This document shows, one piece after another, positions 10,011 to 61,700 of a DNA stretch of 64,000 nt. Made by a program: the position numbers and the translations under genes. Source of the DNA: Acephala macrosclerotiorum (lineage: Eukaryota > Ascomycota > Leotiomycetes > Helotiales > Mollisiaceae); contig MU119212.1 in NCBI GenBank assembly GCA_014904845.1, forward strand, positions 62,001 through 126,000, read 5' to 3'. Position 1 is the first letter of the stretch. Every line of letters starts with the position of its first letter. The notes under the pieces were generated by a model that worked only from the letters and a program-made list of their open reading frames with translations, was not told the origin of the DNA and made no database searches.

Positions 10011-10996
10011 CGATGCATTTTCGGGGGACCCTTTGACGACATGTTATGGATGAGAAAATTATGCATTGGGTGGGCGTCATTTACTGCATTTGGAAGGCGT
10101 TAATGGGTCAAGCAGCATTGAGCGCTGATGGCTTTGTGATACCATAAATCTGCTTTCAGCTCACGTAGCTGTAGGGAATACATACTTGACTCGCATAGTC
10201 CACGAAACTTTGCTGGTGGGCTTGTGTTTGACGTGAAAGAGTCTAGGTGTATGTCGACTATCGTTTTTTTTGAGGATCGTCTCACTTGTACTGTCATCAT
10301 GTTCTTCGAAGCTATTCCTAGGGAATTTTTTTATCTTTCGAGGTGACTAAAGCTTTGCATTGAAGTCTACATGGGAGTCCATCTACACATCATGGATGTC
10401 AACTGCTGCTAAACATCAAATAGAATGTTCCACATACTTCACTAAAGTAGCAAACTTAGATCACCAGGGCGTACAACGACCAAGATCTCCCCCCAAAAGC
10501 CACAGCCAATTCTCAATCCCTCGAAGCTCCCTCCATATTCATGACATCCTCCTAACCCTTGCATGCCTTCTACGGCTTGCGAGACCAGCTACATTAAAAG
10601 CTTTACACTGTGCCCCTGGTCATCTGTCTAGGTCTTTCAGACTTCTAATGTCTCTGGATTTGACAGCGAATAAGAGCTGTCAAAAAGTATGTATCGTATG
10701 GAAGAACTGATTGGGTGCCATATGAGTGGCAAACATATGATCTTGGGACACTCTGTGCTTACCTGGTGAATTCTCTTCTAGCATGACTGCTCCGCTAACT
10801 TATGAACTTAACCCACATAGTATATTCCTCACCTTCTCCACTTCATGACTTTCGTGTTCATCTTCATTATCATTCCTAACCTCATTCCCCTTCTTACTCC
10901 CCTCCTCAAACCACTACGACTATAAAACATCATCCAACCTTCCAAATAAGCCTCCCTAACCTCCCACTACTCACGGCGGTCATCTGACTTGATATG
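10011..10996. other. Gene-free stretch, about 1 kb
   Basis: Only short unsupported ORFs occur. Around 10,830-10,960 the plus strand is pyrimidine-rich (runs of CCTC/CTTC). Nothing else is recognised. Confidence 0.5.
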
Positions 10997-11391
10997 TTAA
11001 TCCTTCTTCATAGACATCCCAACCGAGTCTTCCATAAGAGCAATTAACAATGTCATTCTCGCCTGTGCAGCTGACCCAAGGAATGAAACCAGCGCACTCC
11101 ACATCGTAGGAGCCTTCAAGTACAAAGGTATACTGCTAATGGAACACAAAGCTCCAAGAGCAGTGAAAACCCGTATCCATCTCCAAGCAAAAGCTGTGGA
11201 GCGTCTGTAGATGGGATACATTGCAGTGAAGAGTCCGAGGAGCTGCAAGATAGAATTTTGGATCGGGAGGCAAAAGTCGACATCGAATGTGGCGCCATGA
11301 GTGTTGGGGGCCCGGTGCTATGCGATGATGAGTGGAATGATGGAGAGGACTGTTGTGATTAGGACAACTTCTAACAAGTACGAGGTACGCT
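10997..11391 (-). pseudogene. Remnant of a small integral membrane protein gene
   Basis: One minus-strand frame reads hydrophobic, protein-like sequence on both sides of an in-frame TAG near 11,320. Upstream it gives SYLLEVVLITTVLSIIPLII; downstream it gives HRAPNTHGATFDVDFCLPIQ, then LGLFTAMYPIYRRSTAFAWR and two more hydrophobic segments, ending at 10,997. The open part has about three membrane segments. No start codon or convincing upstream exon was found. I read this as a decayed or truncated membrane-protein gene of unknown function. An unusual splice removing the TAG is the alternative. Confidence 0.45.
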
Positions 11392-11674
11392 AAATGGTAA
11401 AATTAGTACCAACGAGCGGCGAATAAGAAGCTCCTACACTTTGTTGTGGTTGACTAATACAAGAGCCATAGTCTTCATTTTCTTGAACGTAGCTCGTTCT
11501 AGCTTTCTCTTCGTGATCCTAGGCCTAGGCTCATTCGAGGTTTCTGATGAGTGGTCTGGACGTCTGTTATGGATCGATTCAAATCCGTCGAGTGACCTGA
11601 TCTTTGACAGGGTGTCATGGTAAAGTCGTGAAATTTTTTTATTCCAGCTCCTCTTCTATCTGAACGAAACAGTC

Positions 11675-12094
11675 CTAGGAAATTTCTTGAAGCTCTAATA
11701 TGGTAAGGGCACCGTTCTTAATCTTAGGAACGAGCTTTTCGAATCCAGGCTTCAGAAGCATTTTCATGACACTATTCGAGACCTTGAGGGGTTCCAATAG
11801 GTAAGTTTGGTACACCGCAAGAGTTCTAGCTGCTATGCTCCAGACTTTGATCGATTTTTGAATTTGGTTGCGCTTTAAAGATGACAGCTGAAACAAGTCA
11901 TTGTTGATGGAGGCCTGACCCGAAAGCGATAATTGGTCTATAAGTTGCTGGAGGCTAGCAAGATCGGTCTTGTTAAACGGCGACTTGTGCGTTTCGTCTG
12001 AGCGAATTTTATCTGCATGGCGCTGGGCTCGTTTAATCAACGACTTCAGAGCGCCGTCGATTTCATGAAAAATGTAAACAAGTTCTCTCGGCAT
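11675..12094 (-). CDS. Hypothetical 139-aa protein
   Basis: The ORF runs from an ATG at 12,094 to a TGA near 11,675. The product is helical and Lys/Leu/Gln-rich (SLIKRAQRHADKI, LASLQQLIDQLSL, KRNQIQKSIKVWSIAARTL). It has no signal peptide, membrane segment or domain that I recognise. It sits about 240 bp from the TIR element, in a gene-poor stretch, and could be a lineage-specific gene, a gene fragment or a chance ORF. Confidence 0.35.
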   Translation of the reverse strand: MPRELVYIFHEIDGALKSLIKRAQRHADKIRSDETHKSPFNKTDLASLQQLIDQLSLSGQASINNDLFQLSSLKRNQIQKSIKVWSIAARTLAVYQTYLLEPLKVSNSVMKMLLKPGFEKLVPKIKNGALTILELQEIS

Positions 12095-35291: not shown

Positions 35292-37725
35292 ATGTCTTAC
35301 GAGATCCCTGAAGAGGAGGTTGCTCAGGATTTTGCTGCAGCCCTTGCAGACCTCAGCATGAACTCGCGTTATGAAATCAGTAATCTTACCGTGATAGCTC
35401 GAGAGAATACGGCTTCGGCACTTGCAATTTCGGAGGCACTGAAGGCGCATATCAAGCAGGTAGGGCAGTCCATTTCCTTCTAACGAACCCAGCACCTATT
35501 TATTAGTCATTTCTTTGTTGAGATTCCACTTTCTAGTGTGTGTGAATATTCAAGCTCTCGTACTTACAATTCGTCCAGACCTCTCCTGCCAAGAAGCTGC
35601 CTGCTTTCTATGTCCTCGATTCCATTATCAAGAACGTCGGCACTCCATACACACTGTTCTTTGGTAGACAGCTCTACTCGACATTCATGGAAGCATATGC
35701 CCTCGTTGACAACAATGTTCGGTCTAAAATGGTTGAGATGTTGAAAACTTGGAAAGAGCCAGTCCCCGGATCTATGGATACCAGACCTGTATTCCCACCA
35801 GAGGTCACACGTCCTATCGAGAACGCCCTAATCAAGGCACGAACATCTTTTCTTCAAGCTCACCAAGAGCAGACAAGAAGCCAGCAGAACGTCATTGGTC
35901 GGGGACGTCAAATGCAATCATCCACTCCCTACCGCGAGACCCCAACACCTCCAGGCAGCTATCGCCCACCAACTCAGCCTACTCCCGGATATGCCTCGAA
36001 TTATCCCCCTCAGCAGTATCCAGTGCCCATCAATGGGCAACAGTACCCGCCACAAGGTCCTCCACCGCAGCAATATCCAACCCAGCAGATTCCACCGAAC
36101 GGACAGCAGTACCCTTCTCAACAAAATAGCTACCAACCACACGGTCTTCCCCCAGTAAGTAAACTGCGATCTGCTATCTTGATTGTGAAGATACTAACTG
36201 CTGCCAGCGCCCTCCAAGTCAACAATACTCTCAACCACCACCAAACGCAGCAGGCTGGCAGCAGCAATACCCAAACCAACCTCAGCCACCTTATCAAGCT
36301 CAGTCGCCAGTTATGGGCTATACGTCCACTGAGGATAGCTTAGCCGCGTTGAACAGTGATATCGAGAATTTGATTAACGAATCAAAGGCGGAGTGGTCTC
36401 GAAATCCTCATGAAGTTAGCTTTCAAACTAAGCTAAAGGCGTTGTTCGATCTGCAAACTATCTTGCGAAGCCAAAAGCTTCCGCCTGATCAGATCTCTCT
36501 CATTCAAAATCAAGTAGCACAATTAAAGAAAGCCCCTCAGTCTGCACCTATAATGCAAACTCCTCAGGCTCCTTTGCCTCCCACACCTGTAGTGGCTCCT
36601 CCTGCGCCTGCACAGCAACAGCCTACTTTGAGCTCTATTCTTGGTCCTGGTGCTCTTGCAGCACTGCTCGCAAGACAATCTGCGACTCCTCAACCAAGTT
36701 CTGCAGTACCAGATTCCATTCGCTCCCCTCAACAAGCTAGTATCCTGCCCTATCAGCCTCCACCTTCAGTTACACCCGCCGCAACTCCAATTCCGGACCC
36801 AAATTCCCTCCTCGGTCGCCTGCGAGCTGCCGGTATGCTTCCCGGACTTGGGGCCACTACATCAGCGCCAACCCCGACAGTCTCTACACCAACTCTTCCT
36901 TCCCCACCATTCATGAACACTCCTCCAACCTCAACAAGAACTCCACTAGGAATTATTCCTAACGATGTCGTCTTGAAGCCTGCTTCCCTAAAGATGTAAG
37001 TTCTCTGTCTCCTTTCGAAATCGTTTTTAGCTAATCTTTCATAGTCCTCGCCCCCATTTACTTGCTGGCCTGTATGAACATCTTGGCGCACCATGTACAC
37101 AATGCGGCAGACGCTTTCAGTCCGACGAAGAGGGCAAGAAGAAGAAAGCTGCTCACATGGACTGGCACTTCCATGTCCGTCAACGCATGGATGAAGCTGA
37201 GAGTCGAGGCCAGCACCGAAGCTGGTATGTCGACGAGCTTGTAAGTCTTAATATACCGAGGTTGCCACAATATTTCTGACCATATCTGCAGGATTGGATC
37301 AAATCCCGTGAAGTCGAGGGCGAGTCCAGCGCTACGACAACGGACCCGTCACAGAACACAACCGCAGCGACAGCAGCAAAAAATTCTAAGCAGCAATACA
37401 TTCCAGCTCCTGATGATCCAACACTCGCTAGTGTCCCTTGCCCCATCTGTCAAGAGAAATTCGAGATGAAATGGCTTGACGACGCACAGGAGTTTGTCTG
37501 GATGGATGCCATGAAGGTAGGCGAGAAAATATATCACGCAAGCTGTTTCACGGAGGCCACGAAGGACGTAAATACGCAAGCGAAGCGTGGTACCCCTGAG
37601 CCTGTTTTGGGCAAGCGGAAGGCAGAGGTATGTGTTGTCCCCAGTCCTCGTAGTTGGGAATCTTGCTAACTAGCTTACAGGACGATGGCTTTGCGTTCAG
37701 AGCAAAGATCAAGTCCGAGGCCTAA
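35292..37725 (+). CDS. PCF11: mRNA cleavage factor IA subunit Pcf11
   Basis: Pcf11 binds the RNA polymerase II C-terminal domain and drives 3'-end cleavage and termination. Six exons (35292-35459, 35579-36154, 36208-36995, 37045-37240, 37292-37627, 37681-37725) give about 702 aa. The N-terminal CID is clear (residues 1-130: DFAAALADLSMNSRYEISNL, LPAFYVLDSIIKNVGTPYTL, FFGRQLYSTFMEAY). A long Pro/Gln/Tyr-rich region follows, with repeated QQYP units. Two C-terminal zinc-finger modules carry CTQCGRRF...HMDWHFHVR and CPICQEKF...HASC. The end, DDGFAFRAKIKSEA, is typical of the family. Confidence 0.95.
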
Positions 37726-38242: not shown

Positions 38243-38620
38243 TCATGCCTTGTAGAAGGACATGCCAGCATCGGCGTCCTCAGCACGCTTCTCCTTGTAG
38301 AAGCTCATCCCAGCGTCTGCGTCCTCGTTTCGCTTTTCCTTGTAGAAAGACATTCCGGCATCAGCATCCTCACCCCTCTTCTCCTTATAGAAGCTCATTC
38401 CAGCATCAGCATCTTCAGCACGCTTCTCCTTGTAAAAAGACATTCCAGCGTCGGCGTCTTCCTCACGCTTGGCCATAATACTAACGGCAATGTTGGCTGT
38501 TCAAGTGTCAGTGGCACATTCTGGCAGGATACTTTAGTGTGTCGAAGACTTACGATCGACTGCGGTTGGCAAAGCAGCTGCCATGATAGGAAGCACGAGG
38601 AGGATGAAGTTAGGATGCAT
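38243..38620 (-). CDS. Kex2-processed repeat precursor, candidate dikaritin-type RiPP precursor
   Basis: Two exons (38620-38554, 38496-38243) give 106 aa. Residues 1-17 are a signal peptide (MHPNFILLVLPIMAAAL). From residue 34 there are five 15-residue units of the form xEDADAGMSFYKEKR, with x = E, A, G, N, A. Lys-Arg pairs end at residues 33, 48, 63, 78 and 93; the last unit ends ...SFYKA at the stop. Codons differ between copies (Ser TCT/AGC/TCC) while residues do not, which points to selection on the peptide. Kex2 would release five near-identical peptides. The acidic spacer and aromatic core before KR resemble ustiloxin/phomopsin-type precursors. The divergent neighbour is a UstYa oxidase. 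It differs from known alpha-type mating pheromones, which carry a WCxxPGQxC-like core. Confidence 0.85.
38246..38464 (-). repeat. Five tandem 45-bp coding repeats
   Basis: The 45-bp unit encodes the 15-residue peptide block of the precursor. Four copies are complete and the fifth lacks the final EKR. Copies differ mainly at synonymous sites. Confidence 0.9.
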
Positions 38621-39586
38621 TTTGAAGTTTAGAGAGCTAGAGTAGCTTGGACTTTGTGAAAGTTTGTTGTTTTGCTGATATTGAGCTCGAAAGAGGGATG
38701 ATTGCTGTTGCCAGAAGATTTTGAACAGCTGAATTCCTTCACTCTTATAGATTTCATTCCTGCCCAAAGCAGATTCTGATCGGAATCCATCCATGAGCAT
38801 CTGCCGTCTCATCACTTCTCGTTGTCTTGCTAGTCAACCTCATGACAAGGGAATTTGCATTGACGGTTCCCGTGGCAAGGGCATTGTCCTCTCATCGTCG
38901 GCCGCTTGTACGGCATCGTGTCCTTTCCCTCATTCAATTGCCTCCTTAGAAGTTGTTCATGAACGACAAGGAGATGCGTTACCACTACTGTACCAGAATC
39001 CGCAAAGGTATGGACGAGCTGAAAAACAGCAAGTTACATCGTGGAAATTTGTGTTACTCCTCGTATAGTATTTAGCCGTTACGCAGTAGCACGAGCATCA
39101 AGGTCACAGCTTTCAGTCAGCTTCCAATTTGGGAAGAACTTGAAGCTTAGAGAATGTCTCGGTATCACAAGATAAGGTTATTGTGTACCCTGAACACCAC
39201 GGCCCGATGGTCGCTCTCTGCATACAGCCCTGCTGTTTGTGGAGACAAATGACAATTGTTCGTATAGAGGCCGCGCCGCTTCCGTCAATTAGAGTTTTTG
39301 CGGCTGAGTTGTGAGACATGCATGCTCTCAACTGCCGTTTATGGCGGTGAATGACCAGTCATCGCTGTATCGAGTAGCTGTGCCACCTATCAAAGCACTG
39401 GTGAGGGAGCTTTGATGCCTGCTATTGCAAGGACAGACTTCGAACATCGTGCCGATGATGAAGATGTTATGGCAGCTCAGACAGTTTCCCCTCTCGCGCA
39501 GCTTTCTGCTCGTGATTTCCTCCTCCCTTCTCGTTTTCCGTGTCTCCTTCACCATTCTCCAATTTCTTCAAGATACCAAATTCAAT
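38621..39586. promoter_or_regulatory. Divergent precursor/UstYa promoter region
   Basis: About 970 bp lies between the divergent start codons of the repeat precursor and the UstYa gene, an arrangement suited to co-regulation. A TATAAGAG box lies on the minus strand at about 38,743-38,749, some 125 bp upstream of the precursor ATG. No pathway-specific factor gene is visible nearby. Confidence 0.5.
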
Positions 39587-40572
39587 ATGACTTATGCAGA
39601 TAGCGACTCGAAAGACTATGAAGCTCTGCTTTATGACGACGAGTCACTGGGAGAATCGACAGTTCCTTCCATCAGAGAACGTCCTCGGTCGTGGATATTG
39701 ATCCACTCGCTGGTGCTGCTCTCATACTCCTTGCTTTTCGCCTTCTTGGTGTATCGACAAACTAGCACAGAAAACTGCCCTTACAGTCCTGCCCTCATAC
39801 ACTGTAAGTTTTTAGATTATAATGATTCTGCTTAGACAGCTAACTTCCCAAACAGCTCCGGCCAATGAAGCACTCAAACCAGAGAAGATACTATTCGACG
39901 ACGATATAGCAAAGTGGAATCCTTACAGAGGCGAACCACGCCCTGAGATGGACGAAGCATGGCACGAGTTGTTGAAGTACTCGAACATTCGAGTCTCGGC
40001 CGAAGACCTGAAAGCGATCGATCGGACATCCGTCAGATTGTCAGATGGCTCTGGGATGTACATGTCTGAACTCAATGTCTATCACCAACTTCATTGTCTG
40101 AAGATGATCCGACAATCCATGCGTGAGTTGACAGCCAGTTCCGGAAGGAATTCTGCTGATTCTCGCAGATCTAGATAAATACGACATGCCTATGGCTCAT
40201 ATGTCGGAGCATATCGATCATTGTCTTGACAATTTGCGTCTTCTGGTGATGTGCAAAGCGGATGTTTCTCTGCAGACGTATGACTGGCTTGATAATACCC
40301 CGCGACCATTCGCCAATTTCAAGATTGAGCACGAGTGCTACAATTGGGATTCTGTGAACGAATGGGCCAAAGCACGCAGCTTTGATCTGTATGACAATGT
40401 CACGCTCATTCATCCTACTCTAGGTATGTCGAGCACTATTCTTGTATTGGAGAAAGATGCTGATGTATTTGCGCTAGGGCCATCGTTTCCAGTCGACGAG
40501 ACTGGTACGCTTATTGAGATCGAGACCGGAGATTCTTTCTTGGGCAAAATCATCACCCCGCCGGTTGAGTGA
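39587..40572 (+). CDS. UstYa family (DUF3328) oxidase
   Basis: Four exons (39587-39803, 39856-40122, 40169-40423, 40478-40572) give about 277 aa. The order is a short cytosolic acidic N-terminus, one membrane helix (about residues 33-55, WILIHSLVLLSYSLLFAFLV), then the UstYa domain. Both hallmark motifs are present: HQLHC (about 149-153) and HIDHC (about 176-180). The following LDNLRLLVMCKADVSLQTYDW is also typical. UstYa enzymes catalyse oxidative cyclisation, halogenation or chlorination in fungal RiPP and other pathways. Intron 3 (54 nt) is stop-free and in frame; splicing gives the usual HPTLGPSFP. Divergence from the repeat precursor strongly suggests that it modifies that peptide. Confidence 0.9.
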
Positions 40573-42337: not shown

Positions 42338-44243
42338 TCATATAAGCTTGAAACCACTCGTCCTCCCAGGAAAAAAGCCAGTTGGATCATACTCCTTCTG
42401 GACAGCCTTCAGTCGTTGATACGTAGCATCGCCGTATCCTTGTAAAACAGGTTGATCAAACATTGCATCATTCATAAAGGTAGCCGGAGCGAACATTGCT
42501 TGCAGATCTCCAGATCGAAAGTTTGAGGCCTTAACGCCAGGATAAGCCGCCCTGACATACGAGGCAACGTTGTTGATGATATTAGTTATCATAGACTGCC
42601 CGGAATTATCCCCATCAACTGTAAGCCAAGAGACAGTGGATGCCATCCACATCTGATCTCCATAGTCCGTGGATAGACCGAGAAGATTTCCGAGTGGATT
42701 GGCTCGTGCTGAGGCTGCTGGGATTGCATATGGTATGGGCTGGTAGATGAGGACGAACTGGTAGAAGGACTTGAGGAGACCCTGACTCAAGACATAGGAG
42801 ACGAAGTTGTTGTAATTTGCATTGATGAGATCGGTACCGTTCGTTGAGGGTAGATTTGGGATAGTGGTGCCTCGTAATAAGTATCGCAGGCCATACACGC
42901 TGGCAATGTTGGCATTGGTAGCAAGCTTTACATGTCAGTGACCGATTCGATGCGAACTCAAGAAGGGGGCTGTGATTCACCATGGTGCTATATGATTGTG
43001 TCTTTGTTGTGTCTGCTGTAAACGGCAACGAAAGGAATTCGTCAAAGACGCCTGGAGGTGGGCTGGGACCATTATAGAAAAAGAAGACTGTCGCGAATTG
43101 GTCAAGGTTGCTGGCGACAATTTCCAAAGTCACTATGATCCCGGCACCCGGGTCGCGGAAGTTCGCAGTGAAATCTTGTGTTGCGCTCTGAAAAAGCGTC
43201 AGTTGACAGCTTGACCAAATCCACATCCGAGAGTTGCCTACCAATATCTGATGAGCATAATTGCTGCTGTAGGTGCGGTAGCCGCCCCAAACCTAGCGAA
43301 GTCAAAACTCAGTCACAGAGCTTGAATCTGCCGTCAGCCCTCTTACCTGGCCGATTGAGACTGTCCTGACAGTAAACTTGGTGACAATTCCTACAGACTT
43401 AGCATTTTCATTGGCGAAGAACATCGATAGAAGTATCACCAACCAAATTGATTCCCACCACCTTTCAATGCCCAAAACAAGTCGGTATTAGATGTAGCAT
43501 TTGCGTTGACTATGGTGGAATTTGCTAGGACGACTTCGTAGTTCAGGACTGAAAGCAGTCAGTAAGCTGATTATCCGGAAGTGCAAATTATGACTCACTG
43601 TTATCGCAAGGAAGACCGTATAGAGCACTCAGGAAACTCAATCCACAGCCTAGAAGCAAACCCCCAACGCCAACGTCACCTAGATGAAGGGCAGACATTA
43701 GCCATATTCGAAGATTTCCACACCAATCCAAGGACACAAACCAATACGACCTCCTACTGCAGCAACGTTATAAGGTTCCAAAGCAGCAAGGGTCTGGGCC
43801 CAGGTAGCACCAGGACTTAGATATGCTGTCTGTAAGTCTGCGGATATCGCCGTTGAGTTGATGTTTGCCATAGAGATCAACACCCCGCCATCTGAACTCG
43901 AAAATCCAACATTTGCATTGTGACCACCACTCTTTACAGCAAACCCGATATCTGGATATCCAAGCAGGACTCTGATGGTATCTGAGACGTCTTGAGCATT
44001 TTGGGGGAGGACCACGCAGGCAGGAGTTTTATCGGCGTTCGCAGCATTCCAGTAGTGACTCCTCGCAGTTGAGTATTGAGAGGTATACTGATTCATGGGC
44101 CAAATCTCTGTCTGAACATGGGTATTCGCAGCAATGGCTGCACATGCGGCTATGCCTCCACTGGACACAGGCGATGGAGCTCCTAAGATGACAGATGGGA
44201 CACCTAGGACGCCACTCAAAACAGAGGAAAGGAGACCTGCCAT
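42338..44243 (-). CDS. FAD-linked oxidase (berberine-bridge-enzyme-like)
   Basis: Seven exons (44243-43748, 43679-43599, 43548-43444, 43390-43347, 43292-43242, 43187-42981, 42925-42338) give about 523 aa. The N-terminus is hydrophobic and probably a signal peptide. The FAD-binding half has [20 protein letters not shown], the FAD-His motif [27 protein letters not shown], and [20 protein letters not shown]. The BBE tail ends [13 protein letters not shown]. Such enzymes oxidise secondary metabolites and oligosaccharides and are common partners in RiPP and other clusters. The Cys in [10 protein letters not shown] is unusual; Gly is the common residue there. It may belong to the same cluster as the precursor and UstYa genes. 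Confidence 0.88.
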
Positions 44244-46245
44244 GGTGACGAAGCGCAATGAGAAAAACTTGAGGACAATCACCTTGAACTTCAAAGTAAA
44301 GACCAAGTGCAAAGAGGTGCATCATGAGACTGGAGGATCGTTGCAGGTGGCGAGTTGCATCATTCTGTCATGTCTCTGATATTCGAATCTGGAAAGAGCG
44401 TCAGCCCTTGCTTGGCTGCATCTTTGCAATCGGCGATGACGCTGGTGTTCGTGACACATTACCAACAACTCGTGGGCCAAGCTTCAGCTCCAAAGACCAG
44501 GTATTTCTACACAGGAATCATATCGGCCGCACCGAGTATTTACGTACCGGAAGACGATCTGATGGTAATTCGATGGACATTGTCCACGTTCAAGATGACC
44601 ACATGGTAGGACGGTGTTGCCATTCTCGCAAACTATTGCGTGGGAAAGAGCGATATCGATGTGTGATGGTTGACTTGTCACGAAACACGATCGAGGCTTT
44701 AAAGCATATCGTATCGAGATCGAAGTTGATGAATTGCTAACCGAAGGCAGCAGCGTTGTGCCAATTTGAATAACGGCGATGCGCGAAGAAACGAGACTCA
44801 CGGCATGCTTAGAGGGCAATGAGGTCGCGATCTTGGGAATGTTTACGCTGTTAAAACGGCTCGGGGGCTGTAGAAGGGACGATCGTGCGTGGACCTGGGA
44901 GAATGAAGAGCCACACCATCTGCCCGAGTTCGAATGGGGAGGCTTGGGGAGAGCGTGAAGGTCTTGGGAGCCATTGGCGGCAATTCAAGCTTGGAGGCCA
45001 TTTTCGAAGATTCTGTCTTTAGTGAAGCACTCGATTCATGTCGAACGACATTAGGAAACGGTGCGTAGAAATGGCTTTCGTGTCGACAGAACTCGTGGAA
45101 GGTATGTATTCATGATGTAAAGATGGGAGTGGTGCAAATGTTGTCTGAACATACTCGAAGAACTATATTTAATTGAGCAAAGAGAAATGAAGTAAAGTGA
45201 GGATGTTGGTTGTTCGGCAGTTAGAGGTAGCCTATCACCAGCTATCAGCACCTCTATACAGATCAATGCCATGCAAGGCTACCGGCGAGGCTGGTTCAGG
45301 ACTATTAACAACAATATGCATCTGCTGAGCATAGAGACAACCGTATACGCTCTAGCTTGCAGAATGCTGGCTCTTCTCAAGATAATACATTCACCGTAGT
45401 ATATCGCGCCGTTGCCTCCGTTTGCCTCCCCCCCTCCCTCTCTCTCTCGACTTTGTGAGTATGCCGCTATACGCTATGATCTGCCATGGCAAAAGGAGGA
45501 CTCATTATTCGTTTGGATTCGGTTGATACTGATATTCGTTCATGGCTTTGGAAGTGCTCGGCCAGCTGTCGTTTTCTTCGTCTTTGTGCCTTCGGCTGTA
45601 GTTGGCTGCGCAGGCATGAAATTTCATGGAGATGTTGGACTTGACTTTCTCCCAGAGGGTCTTGACTACGATAGAGGTGAGGTTGCGCAGCTTCCACTAG
45701 TGTCTCTCAAGTCGAGCTATCCTGATTGAGGCTAGCGCGCATGGCAACATACTCCTTTACAGTTTTTTCAAGCCTCTCTCTCACCAGCTCTCACAGATAT
45801 TGCAAATACTTCGTCAGCCTCCATTCTCTTGAAATCCCCACAACCAACGGGGCCTTTCCCGAGACAGTGCAGCAATCAAGAGTCTCCCGCGTGCAGAGAA
45901 TTGTTTCTGGTCAGAATCCGTCTTTAGTTTTTAGCTGGGTATCTAGGAAGGCGTTGTCAGTGCACCAATGCAGCGTACCATTCATTCTGCAATAACGCAG
46001 AGTGAAGAGGATTGTTATTATACTCTATTACGGCCCCTAGGCATCCGCTGCAATAATTTCAGTGCAAAACCCAAGGTAAACTATGCATTAGAGGCTAAAA
46101 GCACAAAGGAACTCGACAAAAACGCAATCGAACTCCGTACCAAGTCCTTTAACTCGCTGCGCTAGAATCGAGCGAAAATCAAAACTACCAATGTCCTACG
46201 ACTGCAAGAAAAGACCGACGTGTGATATCAGATTCATCTGCCACA
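44244..46245. other. Gene-free stretch, about 2 kb
   Basis: This includes the FAD oxidase promoter. A minus-strand ORF at 44,484-44,819 carries a Cys-containing segment (CENGNTVLPCGHLERGQCPS) that might be a relic, but I cannot assign it. Nothing else has coding character. Confidence 0.45.
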
Positions 46246-47172
46246 TTACTTAGAGCTCTCACCCGGAACCCACGAGCTCATTCTCAACCAACCTTTGAAG
46301 CTTAGGAGACCTGGATACTCCTGCCTCAAGGCTCTAATGTCTGCTGCATAGCCAGTCTCCTTCCAAAACTTGAACATTAGCCCTACGTCCTTGATCGCCC
46401 ACAGCAATGCTGATCCAACGATACTATAAGTAGTCGGGATATCAGATCCAACCTGCTCACGGAAGATGGCATTCGCCTCCTCGAACGTCAAGTCATCCCC
46501 AGCGAGACTAACTGCGCGGCCGGCGAACTCTTTGGTGTGAAGCAACGCTTGGGCTCCGAAGTAGCCAATATCTGCAGTTGCAATGAGCTGCAGCTTAGTG
46601 CTTGGTGGTAGGCCAACCTTCCAAGCAGTGGGGAAGACCCTCCCAGCGAAGCCTGCCGCGATGTTTTCCATGAAAGCGGTGGGACGGAGGATAGTCCACT
46701 GCATCTGACTGCCCTTGCAAGCCTCTTTCAGATACTTCTCAACATTTGCTTTGCGCCAGAAGTGTGGGATGTCGGTATCATTGGCATCTGATTCTGAACC
46801 ATGGCGATCAACAGACGTATAGACGAAATGTCTGACGCCATGCTCGAGACTTGCGTCGATGAGAGCTTTTCCCTTCACCTCCTCGCCAGAACCATCACTC
46901 ATCGGGCTCATGTCAGGGAGTGACACGAAAAAGACTTTCTTGATCTTTTCGGGTGCATTGGTGAAGATTGTAGTCGGATCTTTTAGATCGCCAGCCAGCA
47001 ACTTGATCTGCTCTGGCGCTTTGACAACTAGCGCCTTCGCTGAGGGAGATTTGGTGTTACGGGTCAGAGCAACAATCTTGATGTCTTTCGCATCAGGAGA
47101 TGCGAGTAGAGCGTTGATCACAGCACCGCCTTGCTTTCCTGTCGCACCCGTGACGAGGATTGTGTGGACCAT
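46246..47172 (-). CDS. NmrA-like NAD(P)-binding protein
   Basis: This single-exon gene encodes about 308 aa from the ATG at 47,172. The Rossmann motif VTGATGKQGG starts at residue 5. HFVYTSVDRHGSESD and WTILRPTAFMENIAAGF are typical of the NmrA/HSCARG atypical short-chain dehydrogenase group. Members act as NADPH-sensing regulators or as reductases. The active-site YxxxK of classical SDRs is replaced by a HFWRK-type segment. The gene is about 2 kb from the FAD oxidase, so membership of the RiPP cluster is possible but not shown. Confidence 0.88.
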   Translation of the reverse strand: MVHTILVTGATGKQGGAVINALLASPDAKDIKIVALTRNTKSPSAKALVVKAPEQIKLLAGDLKDPTTIFTNAPEKIKKVFFVSLPDMSPMSDGSGEEVKGKALIDASLEHGVRHFVYTSVDRHGSESDANDTDIPHFWRKANVEKYLKEACKGSQMQWTILRPTAFMENIAAGFAGRVFPTAWKVGLPPSTKLQLIATADIGYFGAQALLHTKEFAGRAVSLAGDDLTFEEANAIFREQVGSDIPTTYSIVGSALLWAIKDVGLMFKFWKETGYAADIRALRQEYPGLLSFKGWLRMSSWVPGESSK

Positions 47173-48115
47173 TTCCAAAGACCAACGATCGTCAAGTGGT
47201 GTTCGAATTCAGGAGTTAATTCAAGCAATTGCAAATTGAAGCACACGTGGAGAATGAGGGGAAATGTTTCACGGTAAATTTCAGCCCGATCTTACCTGTG
47301 TTCGCGGAATTCACCCATCATGTTTTGATTGGTTGGATGTTTGCGTTTACCGCCTCATTTCAGCTTGTTTCCGATGGCTTGCAGATGGGCGTTCAATCAG
47401 CCTCGCCAAGTCACGCTTTGGCAAGTAACAATCTGGATTGGTTGAAGTGGCCCCTATCTGAAGAAAGTCACGTCGTTGCCCCTGAATCGAATATCGGGCT
47501 ATTTTTATCTCGCTTGCCTTGGAGAGTCAAGATCTGCCTCTACAACGGCTGGTGGTATTATGGAGCTGAAACAGAAAACAATGCATGCTTTCGGTGTGGA
47601 GATGAAGGATCTACCATTTGTTTGCTTGGTTCTGGTAGAGATGCAAGGGAGTCGTTCGGAAGCAAGTGCTCTAATTGTTCACCCTTGAACCTTCATTTTC
47701 TGCCTTCAAATTAATAGCTTTCTTTGTTGTCAAAAGGTCAGCCTTTCTCCCGTGCGTCACCAACATTAAGCTTAATTTGGAAGCCTGGTATCCGAGAGCC
47801 AATCGTCAGGCGACTTTCCCAGCCGTACGGTGCCACGAGAGCAGGAGACACGAGAAGGATGCTTAGCCTCCACCAGACTGCCAATAATAAGTTCAATTCC
47901 GATGAGTCCTTGCTCTACAGAGACGGACAGCAAGGCCTGTCAGGAATCCGAAATGAGAGCCTAGGAGTCCTTGCTCCTTGACTATAAAGAGATGGATCCC
48001 TCTTGATTTCATCGTGACTACACTTTCTACCCAGGCTTCTCGTGATCTTCAGTTGTCTATTTCAGCATTCTTTCAACACATTCGTTCTTAGAACATCGTC
48101 ACTGTCTTCGTCGAG
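47173..48115. other. Intergenic, about 940 bp
   Basis: These are the upstream regions of two divergent genes. A CTATAAAG box near 47,981-47,989 lies about 130 bp before the start of the Cys-rich gene. Short plus-strand ORFs are unsupported. Confidence 0.45.
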
Positions 48116-48887
48116 ATGTTCTTCTCCACTCTCGCTGTCTCAGTCCTCCTGGCTGCAGCTCATGCCTCCCCCGAGCCAGCACCTTATAAGCTGGGTTCTA
48201 TGTCATTGAACAGAGCTTTCGGCCTTCTCAAACGTCAAGCTGGGTACCAACCAACACAAACATATTGCGGTCCGGGAGCAGATTGTGCCACCTCTTGCGG
48301 AGCAGATTTCGTTCAATGTGCCTCTACCGACGGAGATTTGCACTGTTACGACCCATCCATCAAAGATACATGCTGTCCTGATGGTTCCGGAAGTGGGTTG
48401 CCCACCTCTAGTCCCTTCCAAAGTCCTAGCTAACAAAGGTAATCAGATTCTTGCTCCGATGGATACTACTGCACCTCCGACGCCTCAGGCGGAACATGGT
48501 GCTGCCCAGACGTAAGTCCTCCTCCCCCTCACCATATCATATACTAACAAAACCTAGGGAATGGACCTCGCAGCCTGTGCCGCAGCTTACAGTCTAACCG
48601 GCTCTCTCGTCTCCGAAACACCCACCTCAACCCTCTCTTCTTCAACAACACCAGGTTCCGTCTCTGTGTCCACCACCTCCACTCCAACAACAGCCAGTAC
48701 TTCCTCTGTATCAAGTTCGGCAGTGAAGACCAGCCCTACAACTAGTGCGACGCACGTTACGGCTACAGCAAATGGGACGGTGGCGTCGACGACTAGCTCA
48801 GTACCTTTTACGCAGGTTACTGGTGCTGCGAACGCGAAGGTGGTGCCGGCTTTGATGCTTGCCGCTGGGGCTTTGTTTGCTCTTTGA
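48116..48887 (+). CDS. Secreted Cys-rich, Ser/Thr-rich GPI-type surface protein
   Basis: Three exons (48116-48392, 48447-48511, 48558-48887) give about 223 aa. The features in order are a signal peptide (MFFSTLAVSVLLAAAHASPE), a KR-Q site near residue 40, a Cys-rich region (TYCGPGADCATSC, DTCCPDGSGNSCSDGYYCTS, GGTWCCPDGMDL), a long Ser/Thr stretch likely to be O-glycosylated, and a hydrophobic C-terminus (VVPALMLAAGALFAL) after GAANAK that fits a GPI signal. It is probably a cell-wall or surface protein of unknown role. Confidence 0.85.
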
Positions 48888-54542: not shown

Positions 54543-55848
54543 TGCTCGAGATTGGAACTTCGGTCTAAGTGGTAGTGGTGTCCTTTGAAAAGAAAGTAAT
54601 CTGTGATGCTGGTGCTGCTGTTTGAAAACAATTCTTCTCGTGGAGGCAGGGAAAGAAAACTTTGTGAAAGATCGCCCAGAAGTTGGGCTCTTATACTGAA
54701 CTCCCCCCATCTTCCCTCCGCCAGCGCCGGAGCGCTCGATCATTGTCTTCATTGTGAAGACTTTCAGGGTTGGAAGTTGTATTTTGCTCAACAATAGCTG
54801 TCGTGAAGTTGAAAGTGGTGACAATGGTAGCACTAGCGAGGGACAATAGGAGAGTCGTTGCAAGCAGAACAAAATCCTCTTTCTAAGCGAGCGAGCCCAA
54901 AGAATGTCCCAACACAATGGTAACAGAGTTTTCGTAAAGCGTCGTGTTTTTGTTCTCAGTCGATCTGGGATAATGCGAGCCGGATGCGAAGGGTCTTTCA
55001 AGCCCTTCTAAAGTAGGACAAGCGTCTTTCGAGGTGCCGCAACGAATGCCCTACCACAATTGCGCAAATGGCCTTTCGAAAAGTATCTGTTATCAATCCC
55101 GGCCGGTTTGGGACAATAAGATTCCGTCGAAAGAGCTTGAGTCTTCGCAATCCAAGTAGGAGATACGCCGTTTCGAGGCAACGTAGCGCAGGGAGATTCC
55201 AGTCGTGGTTCCAGAAATTTTTTCGAGATGTATTGTGTATGGCACCCCGTTGGTATGGGATAATACGGTTCAGATCGCACTCCTTAGCCTCTTCCCAATC
55301 GGGAAATTCTCTTAAATAGGGATCTCTCCTTCAAAATGTCCCCTCAACGACCGACGATATGTTCAATGCAGTTCGGTATATATATCAATATAAACTTATG
55401 CTCCCTATGGAGCTCAAAGTACAATTCCACGCGAATTATCTTTTGATATAGCATGGAGGCAAATTTTGATACGGACGGTTAAGTAGCAACGTCAGGTGTC
55501 TGAAGCTTTTCGACACCGAAACTCTTTAATGTGTCTTGTACAATGATAGTAAATAATATGACGAGATTGATATAGCTATTGTGAAGACGTTGGTGGCATT
55601 GTCAAGAAAGTGAAACTGTATGAAGTCAGTATCGGTTCTCAGAAAAATTATCGAAGCCCTGTCTCACTAGCTTCACCCTACGGCAGACGCCGCAACCATT
55701 CCTAAAAGGGGTTAGGGCCACAAGGCTGAGAAATCTCGAATCTCGACTGCGCAAAGATCTTGTCAGTCTGATGTTTATGTCTCGGAAAACCATGCATGTC
55801 TGACACTAGAAGATAATAAGCTTCTTTTAACGACATAACGTACGAACA
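54543..55848. other. USP/TRM9 divergent intergenic region with repeat tract
   Basis: This gap of about 1.3 kb holds the USP and TRM9 promoters and the diverged tandem repeats at 54,840-55,280. From 55,330 to 55,848 nothing is recognised. Confidence 0.45.
54840..55280 (-). repeat. Diverged tandem repeat, 127-147 bp period
   Basis: On the minus strand the landmark TATTRTCCC or its near variant recurs at 55,257-55,265, 55,110-55,118, 54,967-54,975 and about 54,840-54,848. Each of the first three is followed about 35 nt later by TTTCGAAA-like sequence. The second and third copies align well beyond that (ATTGTGGTAGGGCATTC against ATTGTGTTGGGACATTC). A chance ORF across the first two copies shows matching peptide halves (YYPIPTGCHTQYISKKF and YCPKPAGIDNRYFSKGH). 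Units are old and imperfect. Confidence 0.6.
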
Positions 55849-56559
55849 ATGGGCTCCGAACAGGAGATCGAGCCGCAAAAGTACGAGGAACAACATGTCC
55901 ACGAGGTTTACGAGCAGATCGCGTCGCATTTCTCTTCGACGAGGTACAAACCTTGGCCAATAGTCGAGTCATTCCTTAAGTCGCTTTCACCTGGCTCTAT
56001 TGGACTTGATGTTGGGTGTGGGAATGGAAAATACCTCACCGTCAATCGAGATATCTTCATCGTTGGAAGCGACCGTTCTTCAAATCTGGTGAAGATTGCA
56101 TCACAGCATCAACCTCACGCAGCTGTTGTCGCCGACACACTCTCTTTGCCTCATCAAAAGGGGAGGTTTGAATTTGCGATCAGTATTGCTGTCGTACATC
56201 ATTTATCTACCCCAGACCGAAGGAGGGAAGCTATCAAAGCTATTCTGGGATGTCTCAAATATGGTGGAAAGGCATTGATCTATGTTTGGGCATTGGAACA
56301 GAAAAACAGCAGGAGAGGATGGGATGAAGGGCACGAACAGGATGTCATGGTGCCTTGGGTCATGAAGAGCGGCAAGAAGAATCCCCACGAGGACGGGTCT
56401 GCGGAGAAGACATTCCAACGATATTACCACCTTTACCGATCTGGCGAATTGGAAGGCGACATCACCGCTATTGGAGGAGATGTTATCGAGTCTGGGTATG
56501 AGAAGGACAACTGGTGGGCTATTTGCAAGAGGGCTGGGAGCCGAAGTGGTCTCGAATGA
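55849..56559 (+). CDS. TRM9: tRNA (5-carboxymethyluridine-34) methyltransferase Trm9
   Basis: This enzyme methylates cm5U to mcm5U at the wobble position of tRNAs, using S-adenosylmethionine with Trm112. The single-exon gene encodes 236 aa. SAM motif I is SIGLDVGCGNGKYL, followed by FIVGSDRSSNLVKIA and HAAVVADTLSLPHQKGRFEF. YEEQHVHEVYEQIASHFSST at the N-terminus and LYRSGELEGDI near the C-terminus are Trm9-specific. Length agrees with the family (279 in yeast, shorter in filamentous fungi). Confidence 0.95.
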   Translation: MGSEQEIEPQKYEEQHVHEVYEQIASHFSSTRYKPWPIVESFLKSLSPGSIGLDVGCGNGKYLTVNRDIFIVGSDRSSNLVKIASQHQPHAAVVADTLSLPHQKGRFEFAISIAVVHHLSTPDRRREAIKAILGCLKYGGKALIYVWALEQKNSRRGWDEGHEQDVMVPWVMKSGKKNPHEDGSAEKTFQRYYHLYRSGELEGDITAIGGDVIESGYEKDNWWAICKRAGSRSGLE

Positions 56560-58745: not shown

Positions 58746-61700
58746 GGTGACGGTTCGAAGTCGCCGATGCCGTCAAGGTTGACGGATCATATGCGAAGTA
58801 TTGCCCAAGTTGTAGGATAGATGATATTGCAGAGGTCCAGGCGGATAAGACGAAGCTTGTCGATAGCAGCTTCGTTGAAAGAGCGTTGAGGCTGACTACC
58901 AGTTTATCCGTGTTGTTGAGGCTGGTGATATCAAAAGCAAGAAGGGTCCGAAATAACGTCTTGACAGTTGGGATAAAGGTCACTGACGTGAAACGAGAAA
59001 GTAACTTTCATAGACTTGATGGTTCAGGGCATTCGGCAACTGGAATCTTGAGACGAGCCACTTCCGACGAGGACAGCGTTCCTATTTCAGGGCTTCAGAA
59101 AGAATTTTGGTGGCTCGCGTAGATCATGACAGCCATCAACATGATTGGCAAGAGCACGTCTGAGGTCTAGCCAATCGCAAAAGATGAGACGAGAGTAGAA
59201 GAAAAAGCCAGCGCCAACGGAACAATACGTCAAAATGTGCTTGATGAGCTTTGAGAGTACAAGGAACTTTGTTCGAACTGGTGATCTCCCAGGCTTTACA
59301 TGGTTACAAGCTATACGGACTGTCGGGAAGATGCGCGATGCAGATAGAGTGTACCCATGGTGGGGGAGTCAGCAGGGGTAGAACTAGTGTGGAGGAAAAT
59401 CTGCTAGGGCGTGGCCACGAATTCATGCATGAACATGAACGAGGAGCAATGCTTGCCACCTTGGACTGTGGATTTATGGCTCAGTGGTGGGAGGAAGTCA
59501 CGGATTCATCGGTTGAAACCCGCCGTGGCGGTGTTGAAACTCTTATATAATCTCAGACTTCTGTGCGACCCCCCGAGACCGTTTTAGGCGCATGTCTGTG
59601 CGCAATCTCAACATCACATACATGTATTGTTGCACTGTACCTCACTTGATTGTGACTTTAAGACGAAGCTTGTCGCCCCCGAACTGCGACTTCATGGATC
59701 CTGTTCCAGGTGGCCACTCACCCAGCATGATATCCAAACACATCAGATCTTGGATTGCCAGCTCGGGCCAACGAACTGGCGGTCAAAGGTGCAAGGGTGG
59801 CATTCTAGGACCTCAGGGATCAAGGTGTATGATCTCCATGGCTTGCAGCGCCTCACAGAGACTGCCATGAACTACGATCTTCGTTGTTCAGCTGGGTGAC
59901 CGAGTTGAGCATGTTCTTCTCAAGCCACTCAAACCGCTCGTTGGTGGCTGAAAAGGAACACTATGCCTGTCCATGACGAGTAGTATCCGAGTACGTTCAC
60001 TCCTCACTTGATGCCTAAACAAAGCAATATGACTTCTGCGTTGTCAACAGGGAGGAGGTAAACAATCACAATCCTCGCCGTTTGCACCGGGGTCTCGCCG
60101 CCTAACATTATAAAGAACAATCCTCATGTGCTCGCCCATTGTCCCATTGATTCAGCAGCGGGTCCTCACAGACTCAAGAGTGCCAGACTGGCGGTGAAAA
60201 GGCACCAGTCATGTGAGTATGCGTCGGGCTTCACGGGATTTCAAAAGTCGAGTCAGAAACCTTCTCCAGAGTCAACGAGACGGGGCATCCATGTGTTGCG
60301 GCTGCACTATCGGAAAGAGACAATGACTAGCGTGTGAAAATGAATTTCTGGCGGAGAAGGCGTTTCTAGAAACGTGCGATAACATAAAAGATGTCTTGGA
60401 TAACCTAACTGTCGAACCTTATCTTCCGCGCCTCAACTAAACCGTGCTAGATAGTACCATGGTAGCGGTGTGTTCAGTATTTTCAGGCCATGATGGAGTT
60501 TTAGCCCGCAGTAGGATCTCGATCATCAGACGAGTAGGTACCGATTCACTGCACGGCCTCCCATAATAGCTCAGCTCTAGCTCTATGCCGTGCATTAGCT
60601 GCGCCGCATCAATGGAGATGGCCGTGCTATAATTGTTTTCGCTCCACTTGCGACAACGTCCACAAAGCCCAACTATGGCATTTGCGACAGACAAGAGCAT
60701 GCATCTCCTGCGAAAAGCCGTCATAGCTTTGTCCGTTTGCTTGAGCCGTCCACTGAGGAGGTTTTGGTGATGTGGAAATTGAGGGAGAGCCCATCGACCG
60801 CTTTCCAGCTCTAGCTTCTGGCTTGCAGCACAAGTGTCATTCGGACCGTTGCCGATGTTATGCCTTATTAGCCTCCTAAGCCTTGTCCCTGCCAACAATG
60901 GAGCAAGCAAGCGAAGCCGTCATCGTCGACCTAATCGACCCCTCCTGTTGCATTTTGGGATCGCAGAGAGTGGAGGGGATCCAAATCCGTCCGAGCCGGG
61001 GGCAGTTGTTCGAAGTCCCACTCCGCGTGATGCCCGGATCTGCAGGGCTGGAGAAGCGTCTCAGGACCCATGGATGTTTGAGCGGTGAGGCAACATATCG
61101 ATTATAGACATGGAAACCAGCGTTGTTAGGTCTTGGGCAATACAACACAATGGCATCGGACGTGACCTGTCAAGCATTCGGGGACAGCTTCGATGCAGGG
61201 ACCGAAGATTCATGCTGATTCCCGACTGGCTGCCATTCTCAGCCCAATGGATAAAGTTCACGACGTGATCTGCAAACGGCCATTGACCAATGGATGCGGG
61301 TTGAGCTAAAGCCCCCCATTTTTGTCAGAGCGCCAAATCGTGAAACGGCTTGGAACCACAGCATTGTACTGCCAGTGTCATGCTTTGTTCTTTTCAACGG
61401 TGAAGAAGCCGAGTTGGGACGGCGATGGCAGAACAGAAAACGAACGCGGTAGATGAACTTTCCAAGGAGTGCTTGATTCTGTCTCAAGGCATGTCGTTGT
61501 CGTCGATCGCCTTTTTATCGCTACCAAGATGTCGTGGTACCCTCGTACTTGTGGCTGGTGAGCCAAAATCAAGGAGTGTCCAATGCGTGGCGTGGCTGAT
61601 GAACCGCGACAGAAAACTCCTTGGAAGATCAGCTTGGATCCTGGAGCGATCACTGGGAAGGGAGAGCTTACGCCATGTGATATAATAGAACATTGAGATA

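What the first reader, a model, noticed from the sequence alone, without database searches (positions are those of the whole stretch)
38243..40572. Candidate new dikaritin-type RiPP locus: five-copy Kex2 precursor divergent to a UstYa oxidase
The sequence shows a 106-aa secreted precursor with five 15-residue repeats (xEDADAGMSFYKEKR) separated by Lys-Arg. Divergent to it is a membrane-anchored protein with both HxxHC motifs of the UstYa family. In ustiloxin, phomopsin, asperipin and epichloecyclin systems this pairing defines a ribosomal peptide pathway: Kex2 cuts the precursor and UstYa cyclises the core through an aromatic side chain. The repeat here has adjacent Phe-Tyr, an acidic Ala-Asp spacer and synonymous codon divergence, which argues for selection on the peptide. 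I do not recognise this core from any described product. The product, cyclisation site and exact core (perhaps GMSFY or MSFYK) are inferred.
Basis: partly seen in the sequence, partly recalled or inferred. Interest (0 to 1): 0.92.

Follow-up and report, generated by a model that had tools for sequence, protein, structure and literature searches.

The report
Fungal repeat-peptide gene beside UstYa oxidase
A root-associated fungus carries a small gene encoding five near-identical peptide copies, back to back with an oxidase of the UstYa family that ties such peptides into rings elsewhere, so this is probably one more pathway for a ribosomally made cyclic peptide whose product nobody has yet reported.

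Summary
The two genes match Acephala macrosclerotiorum (Helotiales) models. A two-exon gene (38620-38243, minus) encodes a 106-aa secreted precursor with five Lys-Arg-spaced repeats xEDADAGMSFYKEKR, the last ending FYKA. Divergent, 966 bp away, lies a 277-aa four-exon UstYa protein (39587-40572) with a membrane helix and both HxxHC motifs. The 11 invariant repeat residues vary only by synonymous codons.

New support: the best-scoring paralogue of this UstYa in the genome (51%, contig C71) also lies within 1.5 kb of a signal-peptide gene with DEDALFWYK repeats; both C71 genes carry stop codons. A third, intact paralogous precursor (C5, ADADxATLYKTNKR) has no UstYa nearby. All three keep an acidic stretch and Tyr-Lys, placing the core around [S/T/F][F/L/I/W]YK.

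Best reading: a minimal two-gene UstYa-type RiPP pathway. No tyrosinase match lies on this contig, so the strict (ustiloxin/phomopsin) gene set is not met; asperipin-2a is the nearest architecture. A published survey counts 1758 precursors with UstYa genes nearby, so this is a new member of a known kind. Product, cross-link and expression are untested.

The parts
38554..38620 (-). Precursor exon 1: ATG and signal peptide (MHPNFILLVLPIMAAALPTAVD)
   Evidence: 67 nt, phase 1; hydrophobic core; signal peptide judged by hydropathy, SignalP not available
38497..38553 (-). Precursor intron, 57 bp, GTAAGT..CAG, phase 1
   Evidence: same splice implied by the public protein P0001
38243..38496 (-). Precursor exon 2 with five Kex2-spaced repeats (38464-38420, 38419-38375, 38374-38330, 38329-38285, 38284-38246) and stop
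38621..39586 (.). 966-bp stretch between the two divergent start codons, possible shared promoter
   Evidence: promoter function inferred
39587..40572 (+). UstYa-family protein, 277 aa, exons 39587-39803, 39856-40122, 40169-40423, 40478-40572
   Evidence: same as BDZ45DRAFT_737301
40083..40097 (+). First HxxHC motif (HQLHC, residues 149-153)
   Evidence: His and Cys at least 90% conserved in 31 sequences
40210..40224 (+). Second HxxHC motif (HIDHC, residues 176-180)
42341..44321 (-). Neighbouring FAD-binding (BBE-like) oxidoreductase, possible but unproven tailoring enzyme; exons not modelled
   Evidence: Pfam FAD_binding_4 39.8 bits; BBE 20.4 bits, just under its cut-off of 20.6
46249..47208 (-). 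NmrA-like reductase, possible but unproven partner; the asperipin-2a cluster has an isoflavone reductase
   Evidence: Pfam NmrA 132.2 bits; asperipin cluster from PMC6514808 passages

Best explanation
A minimal UstYa-type RiPP locus. Shown by sequence: a secreted precursor with five Kex2-spaced copies of one peptide, divergent to an uninterrupted UstYa-family gene with a membrane helix. Inferred: the precursor enters the secretory pathway, Kex2 cuts after each Lys-Arg, exopeptidases trim the ends, and the UstYa oxidase forms an oxidative bond on the side chains of the F-Y-K core, most likely through the conserved Tyr, giving a cyclic peptide 2 or 4 hydrogens lighter than the linear one. The acidic DAD stretch is a spacer or recognition sequence inside each repeat.
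For: Anatomy. Purifying selection on the repeat, only synonymous changes, Ser written AGC in some copies and TCT/TCC in others. Second pair: the UstYa that scores best against this one in the genome (C71, 51%, 124.6 bits; next by score 34%, 80.1 bits; some shorter, weaker matches reach 44%) lies within 1.5 kb of a gene with a signal peptide and DEDALFWYK repeats. That UstYa has two stop codons inside its conserved exon, one at the only invariant column, W108, and the C71 precursor has a stop inside a repeat: both members of the pair look decayed. A third precursor at C5 keeps the acidic stretch and [T][LI]YK. Of the 30 UstYa exon loci read with 1.5-kb flanks (some overlap), three (L016 window, L012 C71, L006 C87) hold a precursor-like gene. 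A kexin P-domain match exists at C7, 57 of 86 positions, 63 bits. Umemura 2020 (PMC7329392, abstract and section 7): 1758 of 7878 precursors have a DUF3328 gene among their 15 nearest genes, most often the adjacent one, and Tyr is enriched in their repeats (65.6% against 38.2%).
Against: The intact paralogous precursor at C5 has no UstYa near it: the UstYa matches on C5 are at 222-254 kb, the precursor at 841 kb; its right side runs into AT-rich sequence and the contig end. The C71 pair is in tandem on one strand, not divergent as in the window. Window and C71 repeat units are only weakly alike (shuffle P 0.044; window-C5 0.0025; C71-C5 0.0065); the window query did not find C71 and the C71 query found only C71 itself. 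No relative of the precursor in 5.8 billion proteins other than itself, so linkage could not be followed in other species. No tyrosinase match on the contig; no transporter domain among the 50 ORFs scanned. No expression or mass data. UstYa has no solved relative by sequence or fold.
Confidence: 0.77

Rival explanations
1. The precursor makes linear secreted signalling peptides (pheromone-like or otherwise) and the UstYa protein works on something else.
For: Most fungal Kex2-repeat precursors (6120 of 7878) have no DUF3328 gene nearby (PMC7329392). The C5 paralogue has none near it. The acidic Asp-Ala spacer resembles the dipeptide spacers of alpha-factor precursors (recalled, not tested).
Against: Precursors annotated as mating factors or pheromones almost never sit with DUF3328 genes (0 of 227 and 3 of 216, PMC7329392 passages). 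Both members of the C71 pair are decayed. The repeat has no Cys, whereas PMC6339444 (passage) describes an alpha pheromone with two conserved Cys in Leotiomycetes.
Confidence: 0.12
2. The locus is a larger cluster in which the BBE-like FAD oxidase and the NmrA-like reductase further modify the cyclic peptide, in the way the asperipin cluster includes an isoflavone reductase. This extends rather than opposes the best explanation.
For: Both genes lie within about 7 kb of UstYa. The asperipin-2a cluster consists of precursor, UstYa homologue, transporter and isoflavone reductase (PMC6514808 passages).
Against: A gene of uncertain kind (F-box-like, 15.5 bits, below its cut-off of 24.3) lies between. 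FAD-binding proteins are expanded in this fungus anyway (PMC7550596 passage). No transporter or tyrosinase domain in the 50 ORFs scanned. I recognised no such enzymes by eye in the 13.5 kb around the C71 pair (no domain scan was run there).
Confidence: 0.25
3. Chance neighbours: an unrelated repeat protein beside a UstYa gene.
For: 59 UstYa exon matches in the genome give many opportunities.
Against: Even allowing 3 kb for each of the 59 matches, they cover about 0.25% of 69.66 Mb (arithmetic). A second pair exists with the best-scoring UstYa paralogue, although I found it by looking beside UstYa genes.
Confidence: 0.04

Closest known systems
Asperipin-2a pathway (Aspergillus flavus aprA, aprY, aprT, aprR)
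   Same: Repeat precursor with a single UstYa homologue, no tyrosinase among its four genes, aromatic core with adjacent Phe-Tyr (FYYTGY); an isoflavone reductase in that cluster and an NmrA-like reductase about 6 kb from UstYa here (PMC6514808 passages)
   Different: Core around SFYK/MSFYK differs, no transporter recognised, link to the reductase unproven
Ustiloxin / phomopsin dikaritins
   Same: Signal peptide, Kex2-spaced repeats, UstYa-family protein, Tyr in the core
   Different: No YxIx core; one UstYa gene here against two and five (PMC7329392 section 7); no tyrosinase match on the contig; a methyltransferase-domain ORF lies about 15 kb from UstYa at 55831-56556, with no sign that it belongs
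Epichloecyclins (Epichloe)
   Same: Plant-associated fungus, ribosomal peptide cyclised oxidatively on Tyr, with a modified Lys (PMC6514808 passage)
   Different: Different core (recalled); Lys methylation not testable here
[quoted passage not shown]
   Same: Signal peptide, repeated peptide, Lys-Arg between copies
   Different: No relative outside this genome found; with C71 and C5 it may form a small type of its own

Membership tests
Kex2-processed repeat protein (KEP) | Secretion signal | tested here: met
   Hydrophobic N-terminus, mean hydropathy 2.85 over 11 residues; SignalP not available
Kex2-processed repeat protein (KEP) | Several near-identical peptides separated by Lys-Arg | tested here: met
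   Five copies, KR before the first and between all
Kex2-processed repeat protein (KEP) | Host has a kexin | tested here: met
   PF01483 P-domain match at G000:C7:216496-216666, positions 1-57 of 86, 63 bits, one stop in the stretch; the protease domain was not searched
UstYa (DUF3328) family | Pfam PF11807 above cut-off | tested here: met
   82.8 and 68.3 bits, cut-off 25
UstYa (DUF3328) family | Two HxxHC motifs and an N-terminal membrane helix | tested here: met
   HQLHC, HIDHC; hydrophobic helix 35-60 in the model
Dikaritin, broad sense (DUF3328 as defining gene) | UstYa/DUF3328 gene with a signal-peptide repeat precursor | tested here: met
   definition as quoted in PMC12048977 section 22, which adds that DUF3328 is not exclusive to RiPPs
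Dikaritin, phomopsin-type gene set | Tyrosinase in the cluster | tested here: not met
   0 of 42 tyrosinase exon matches in the genome lie on C11
Dikaritin, phomopsin-type gene set | N-methyltransferase in the cluster | tested here: inconclusive
   Methyltransf_11 ORF at 55831-56556, about 15 kb and several genes away
UstYa-type RiPP (asperipin-like) | Precursor gene next to a UstYa gene | tested here: met
   966 bp apart, divergent; a decayed pair in tandem at C71
UstYa-type RiPP (asperipin-like) | Linkage conserved in other species | not testable with these tools
   UstYa orthologues found but no contigs of other fungi could be read
UstYa-type RiPP (asperipin-like) | Oxidatively cross-linked product | not testable with these tools
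   Needs mass spectrometry or expression

The most novel reading that the evidence does not exclude
The window, C71 and C5 precursors form a new peptide family with an obligatory Tyr-Lys pair and a dedicated UstYa subfamily, and the oxidase makes a cross-link not yet seen in fungi, for example one involving the Lys or Ser next to the Tyr, working without a tyrosinase. The C5 precursor would be modified in trans by the same enzyme.
Probability: 0.15. Interest if true: 0.65.

Novelty: new member of a known kind. Interest (0 to 1): 0.38.

Why it matters
If right, it adds a compact two-gene route to a cyclic peptide in an ectomycorrhizal, root-associated ascomycete, where such products could act in symbiosis or competition. 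Its small size would make it convenient for learning what a single UstYa enzyme does without a tyrosinase, a question still open for much of the family. The decayed sister pair in the same genome supports the view that precursor and enzyme stand and fall together.

Tried and rejected
Precursor homologues: two protein searches (3 and 155 candidates) returned only the gene itself, so species-to-species linkage could not be tested. For UstYa, PDB by sequence gave 0 matches and by fold 41 matches, none with E at or below 0.001. The bacterial-type promoter scan of the intergenic stretch does not apply to a fungus and is not used. A strict Kex2-split scan missed the C71 and C87 precursors because of stops and introns; a stop-tolerant repeated-word scan found them. 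That scan is loose: within the 30 UstYa loci it flagged L006, L012, L016 and L021. L021 was read in six frames, has stops in all, and was dropped; an L006 cluster at 293-332 is a short tandem duplication without signal peptide or KR-spaced array in the three forward frames, and was dropped. The L006 cluster at 3098-3496 had only two or three words per step and was kept because reading it showed a signal peptide and repeats. Clusters outside those loci (window 36022-36114 and 59202-59399, C71 9440-9615, C5 1109-2674 and 11814-12008, strand copies included) were not read further. Considered and set aside: alpha pheromone and chance neighbours (see rivals). Literature: 'MSFYK' occurs in 2 papers, unrelated by title; 'TLYKTN' in none; of 11 papers naming A. 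macrosclerotiorum I read passages of one (PMC7550596). The held library is only part of the literature. Seen of papers: PMC7329392 abstract, passages, section 7 and part 1 of section 6; PMC12048977 abstract and section 22; PMC6514808, PMC6339444, PMC7099791 and PMC7550596 passages only; others in search listings only.

Full report
What the window is. The two genes of the finding match public gene models of Acephala macrosclerotiorum at 100% (P0001 BDZ45DRAFT_797397; P0002 BDZ45DRAFT_737301). This is a Helotialean ascomycete, family Mollisiaceae, called ectomycorrhizal in PMC7550596 (passages). The genome held here has 69.66 Mb in 778 contigs; the window is contig C11:62001-126000.

The observation. 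The precursor gene runs on the minus strand from ATG 38620 to the stop at 38243, with a 57-bp intron after the signal peptide; the public protein implies the same splice. The 106-aa product has KR before the first repeat and between all five repeats. The fifth repeat ends FYKA and has no EKR. The UstYa gene starts at 39587 on the plus strand and ends at 40572, with three introns of 52, 46 and 54 bp. Its second and third exons reach 82.8 and 68.3 bits against Pfam UstYa, cut-off 25. It has a predicted helix at residues 35-60 (model of mean pLDDT 72.6, pTM 0.61) and the motifs HQLHC and HIDHC, whose His and Cys are at least 90% conserved in an alignment of 31 sequences.

More than chance. Among the 11 invariant repeat codons nine vary between copies and every change is synonymous. 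At least 13 substitutions are needed; if each were neutral and independent the chance that all are synonymous is about 7e-10. Repeats can be homogenised together, so the number is a guide, but Ser is written AGC in some copies and TCT or TCC in others, which argues for selection on the peptide. A strict Kex2-repeat scan of the 64-kb window found this ORF alone.

A second pair. I searched the genome with the UstYa family (59 exon matches) and with the window's own UstYa (34 matches). The best-scoring paralogue, at C71:217394-217869 with a probable first exon reaching about 218161, is 51% identical over residues 91-203; the next by score is 34%, and some shorter, weaker matches reach 44%. Upstream of it on the same strand, so in tandem and not divergent, a signal-peptide exon (ATG at 219346, 70 nt to a GTAGGT donor, phase 1) is followed by repeats with DEDALFWYK. 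Two copies are uninterrupted; a further one contains a stop. The C71 UstYa has two stops in its conserved exon, one at the only invariant column of the family alignment. Both members of the pair therefore look decayed. That is what one expects if they served one purpose, although decay of a whole region would look the same.

A third precursor. The window precursor finds one other place in the genome, C5:841260-841457, E 1.4e-4: an intact two-exon gene with repeats such as EPADADIATLYKTNKR. No UstYa match lies near it (those on C5 are at 222-254 kb); to its right the sequence becomes about 10% GC and the contig ends. All three precursors share an acidic stretch and a Tyr-Lys, and each can be read with a phase-1 intron right after the signal peptide (exon 1 of 67, 64 and 70 nt); the splice is supported by a public model only for the window gene, and the C71 acceptor was not settled. 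Unit-to-unit similarity is modest: shuffle P 0.0025 (window-C5), 0.0065 (C71-C5), 0.044 (window-C71). The window query did not find C71, and the C71 query found only C71.

Base rate. With 1.5-kb flanks around 30 of the 59 UstYa exon matches (L002-L031; several overlap because they are exons of one gene or neighbouring genes), precursor-like genes appear at three places: the window (L016), C71 (L012) and C87 (L006), the last with a signal peptide and AYTGPGG repeats apparently spread over several short exons. The strict scan of the same loci had found only the window. In print, 1758 of 7878 fungal Kex2-repeat precursors have a DUF3328 gene among their 15 nearest genes (30.1% in Ascomycota as the paper states), with the peak at the adjacent position, and 65.6% against 38.2% of repeats contain Tyr (PMC7329392, abstract and section 7). 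So the pair is ordinary in kind; its particulars I did not find in print in the searches I made.

How it probably works. In the asperipin-2a pathway a single UstYa homologue, AprY, is essential and is credited with sequential oxidative macrocyclisation of FYYTGY (PMC6514808 passages). By analogy the precursor here is secreted, cut by Kex2 (a P-domain match lies at C7), trimmed, and oxidatively cross-linked by UstYa. What survives in the three paralogous precursors is the acidic stretch and Tyr-Lys, so the core most likely contains FYK rather than ending at Tyr. None of these steps has been shown. The neighbouring BBE-like FAD oxidase (42341-44321) and NmrA-like reductase (46249-47208) are possible tailoring enzymes.

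Membership. It meets the criteria of a Kex2-processed repeat protein and of the UstYa family, and by gene content the asperipin-like sense of a UstYa-type RiPP locus. In the broad sense, where DUF3328 defines dikaritins, it qualifies; in the phomopsin-type sense it does not, since none of 42 tyrosinase exon matches lies on C11. UstYa enzymes also serve non-RiPP pathways (PMC12048977 section 22), so gene content alone is not proof.

Conservation. Related UstYa proteins occur in Phialocephala subalpina (72% over 67% of the length), Diaporthe, Pestalotiopsis, Colletotrichum, Letharia and Talaromyces (31 proteins, itself included, of 482 candidates). The precursor has no relative outside this genome in two searches. 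Short precursor genes are often left out of annotations, and the search needs shared five-residue words, so this absence is weak evidence.

Verdict. Real, correctly read in outline, improved by the C71 pair, and a new member of a known kind. Interest 0.38.

Noticed in passing
L006 2994-3500 (G000:C87, about 0.9 kb downstream of the UstYa match 151070-151669): Another likely precursor beside a UstYa gene: signal peptide followed by GVSILNR..AYTGPGG repeats that seem to be spread over several short exons.
   Followed up: partly
G000:C71:217394-219346 (L042, L043): Decayed precursor with DEDALFWYK repeats in tandem with a decayed UstYa gene, the best-scoring paralogue of the window's UstYa.
   Followed up: yes
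L033 1362-1722 (G000:C5, near 841260): Intact paralogous precursor with repeats such as EPADADIATLYKTNKR, beside an AT-rich (about 10% GC) contig end, with no UstYa match near it.
   Followed up: yes
G000:C226:1986-11985: A tyrosinase match (1986-2744) about 8-9 kb from two UstYa matches (10927-11550 and 11809-11985), a possible canonical dikaritin-type cluster.
   Followed up: no
G000:C331:46191-52859: Eight UstYa exon matches within 7 kb on one contig, suggesting a UstYa-rich biosynthetic cluster.
   Followed up: no
window 48092-48430: Short ORF with a likely signal peptide and a KR site, no Pfam match; possibly a small secreted protein.
   Followed up: no
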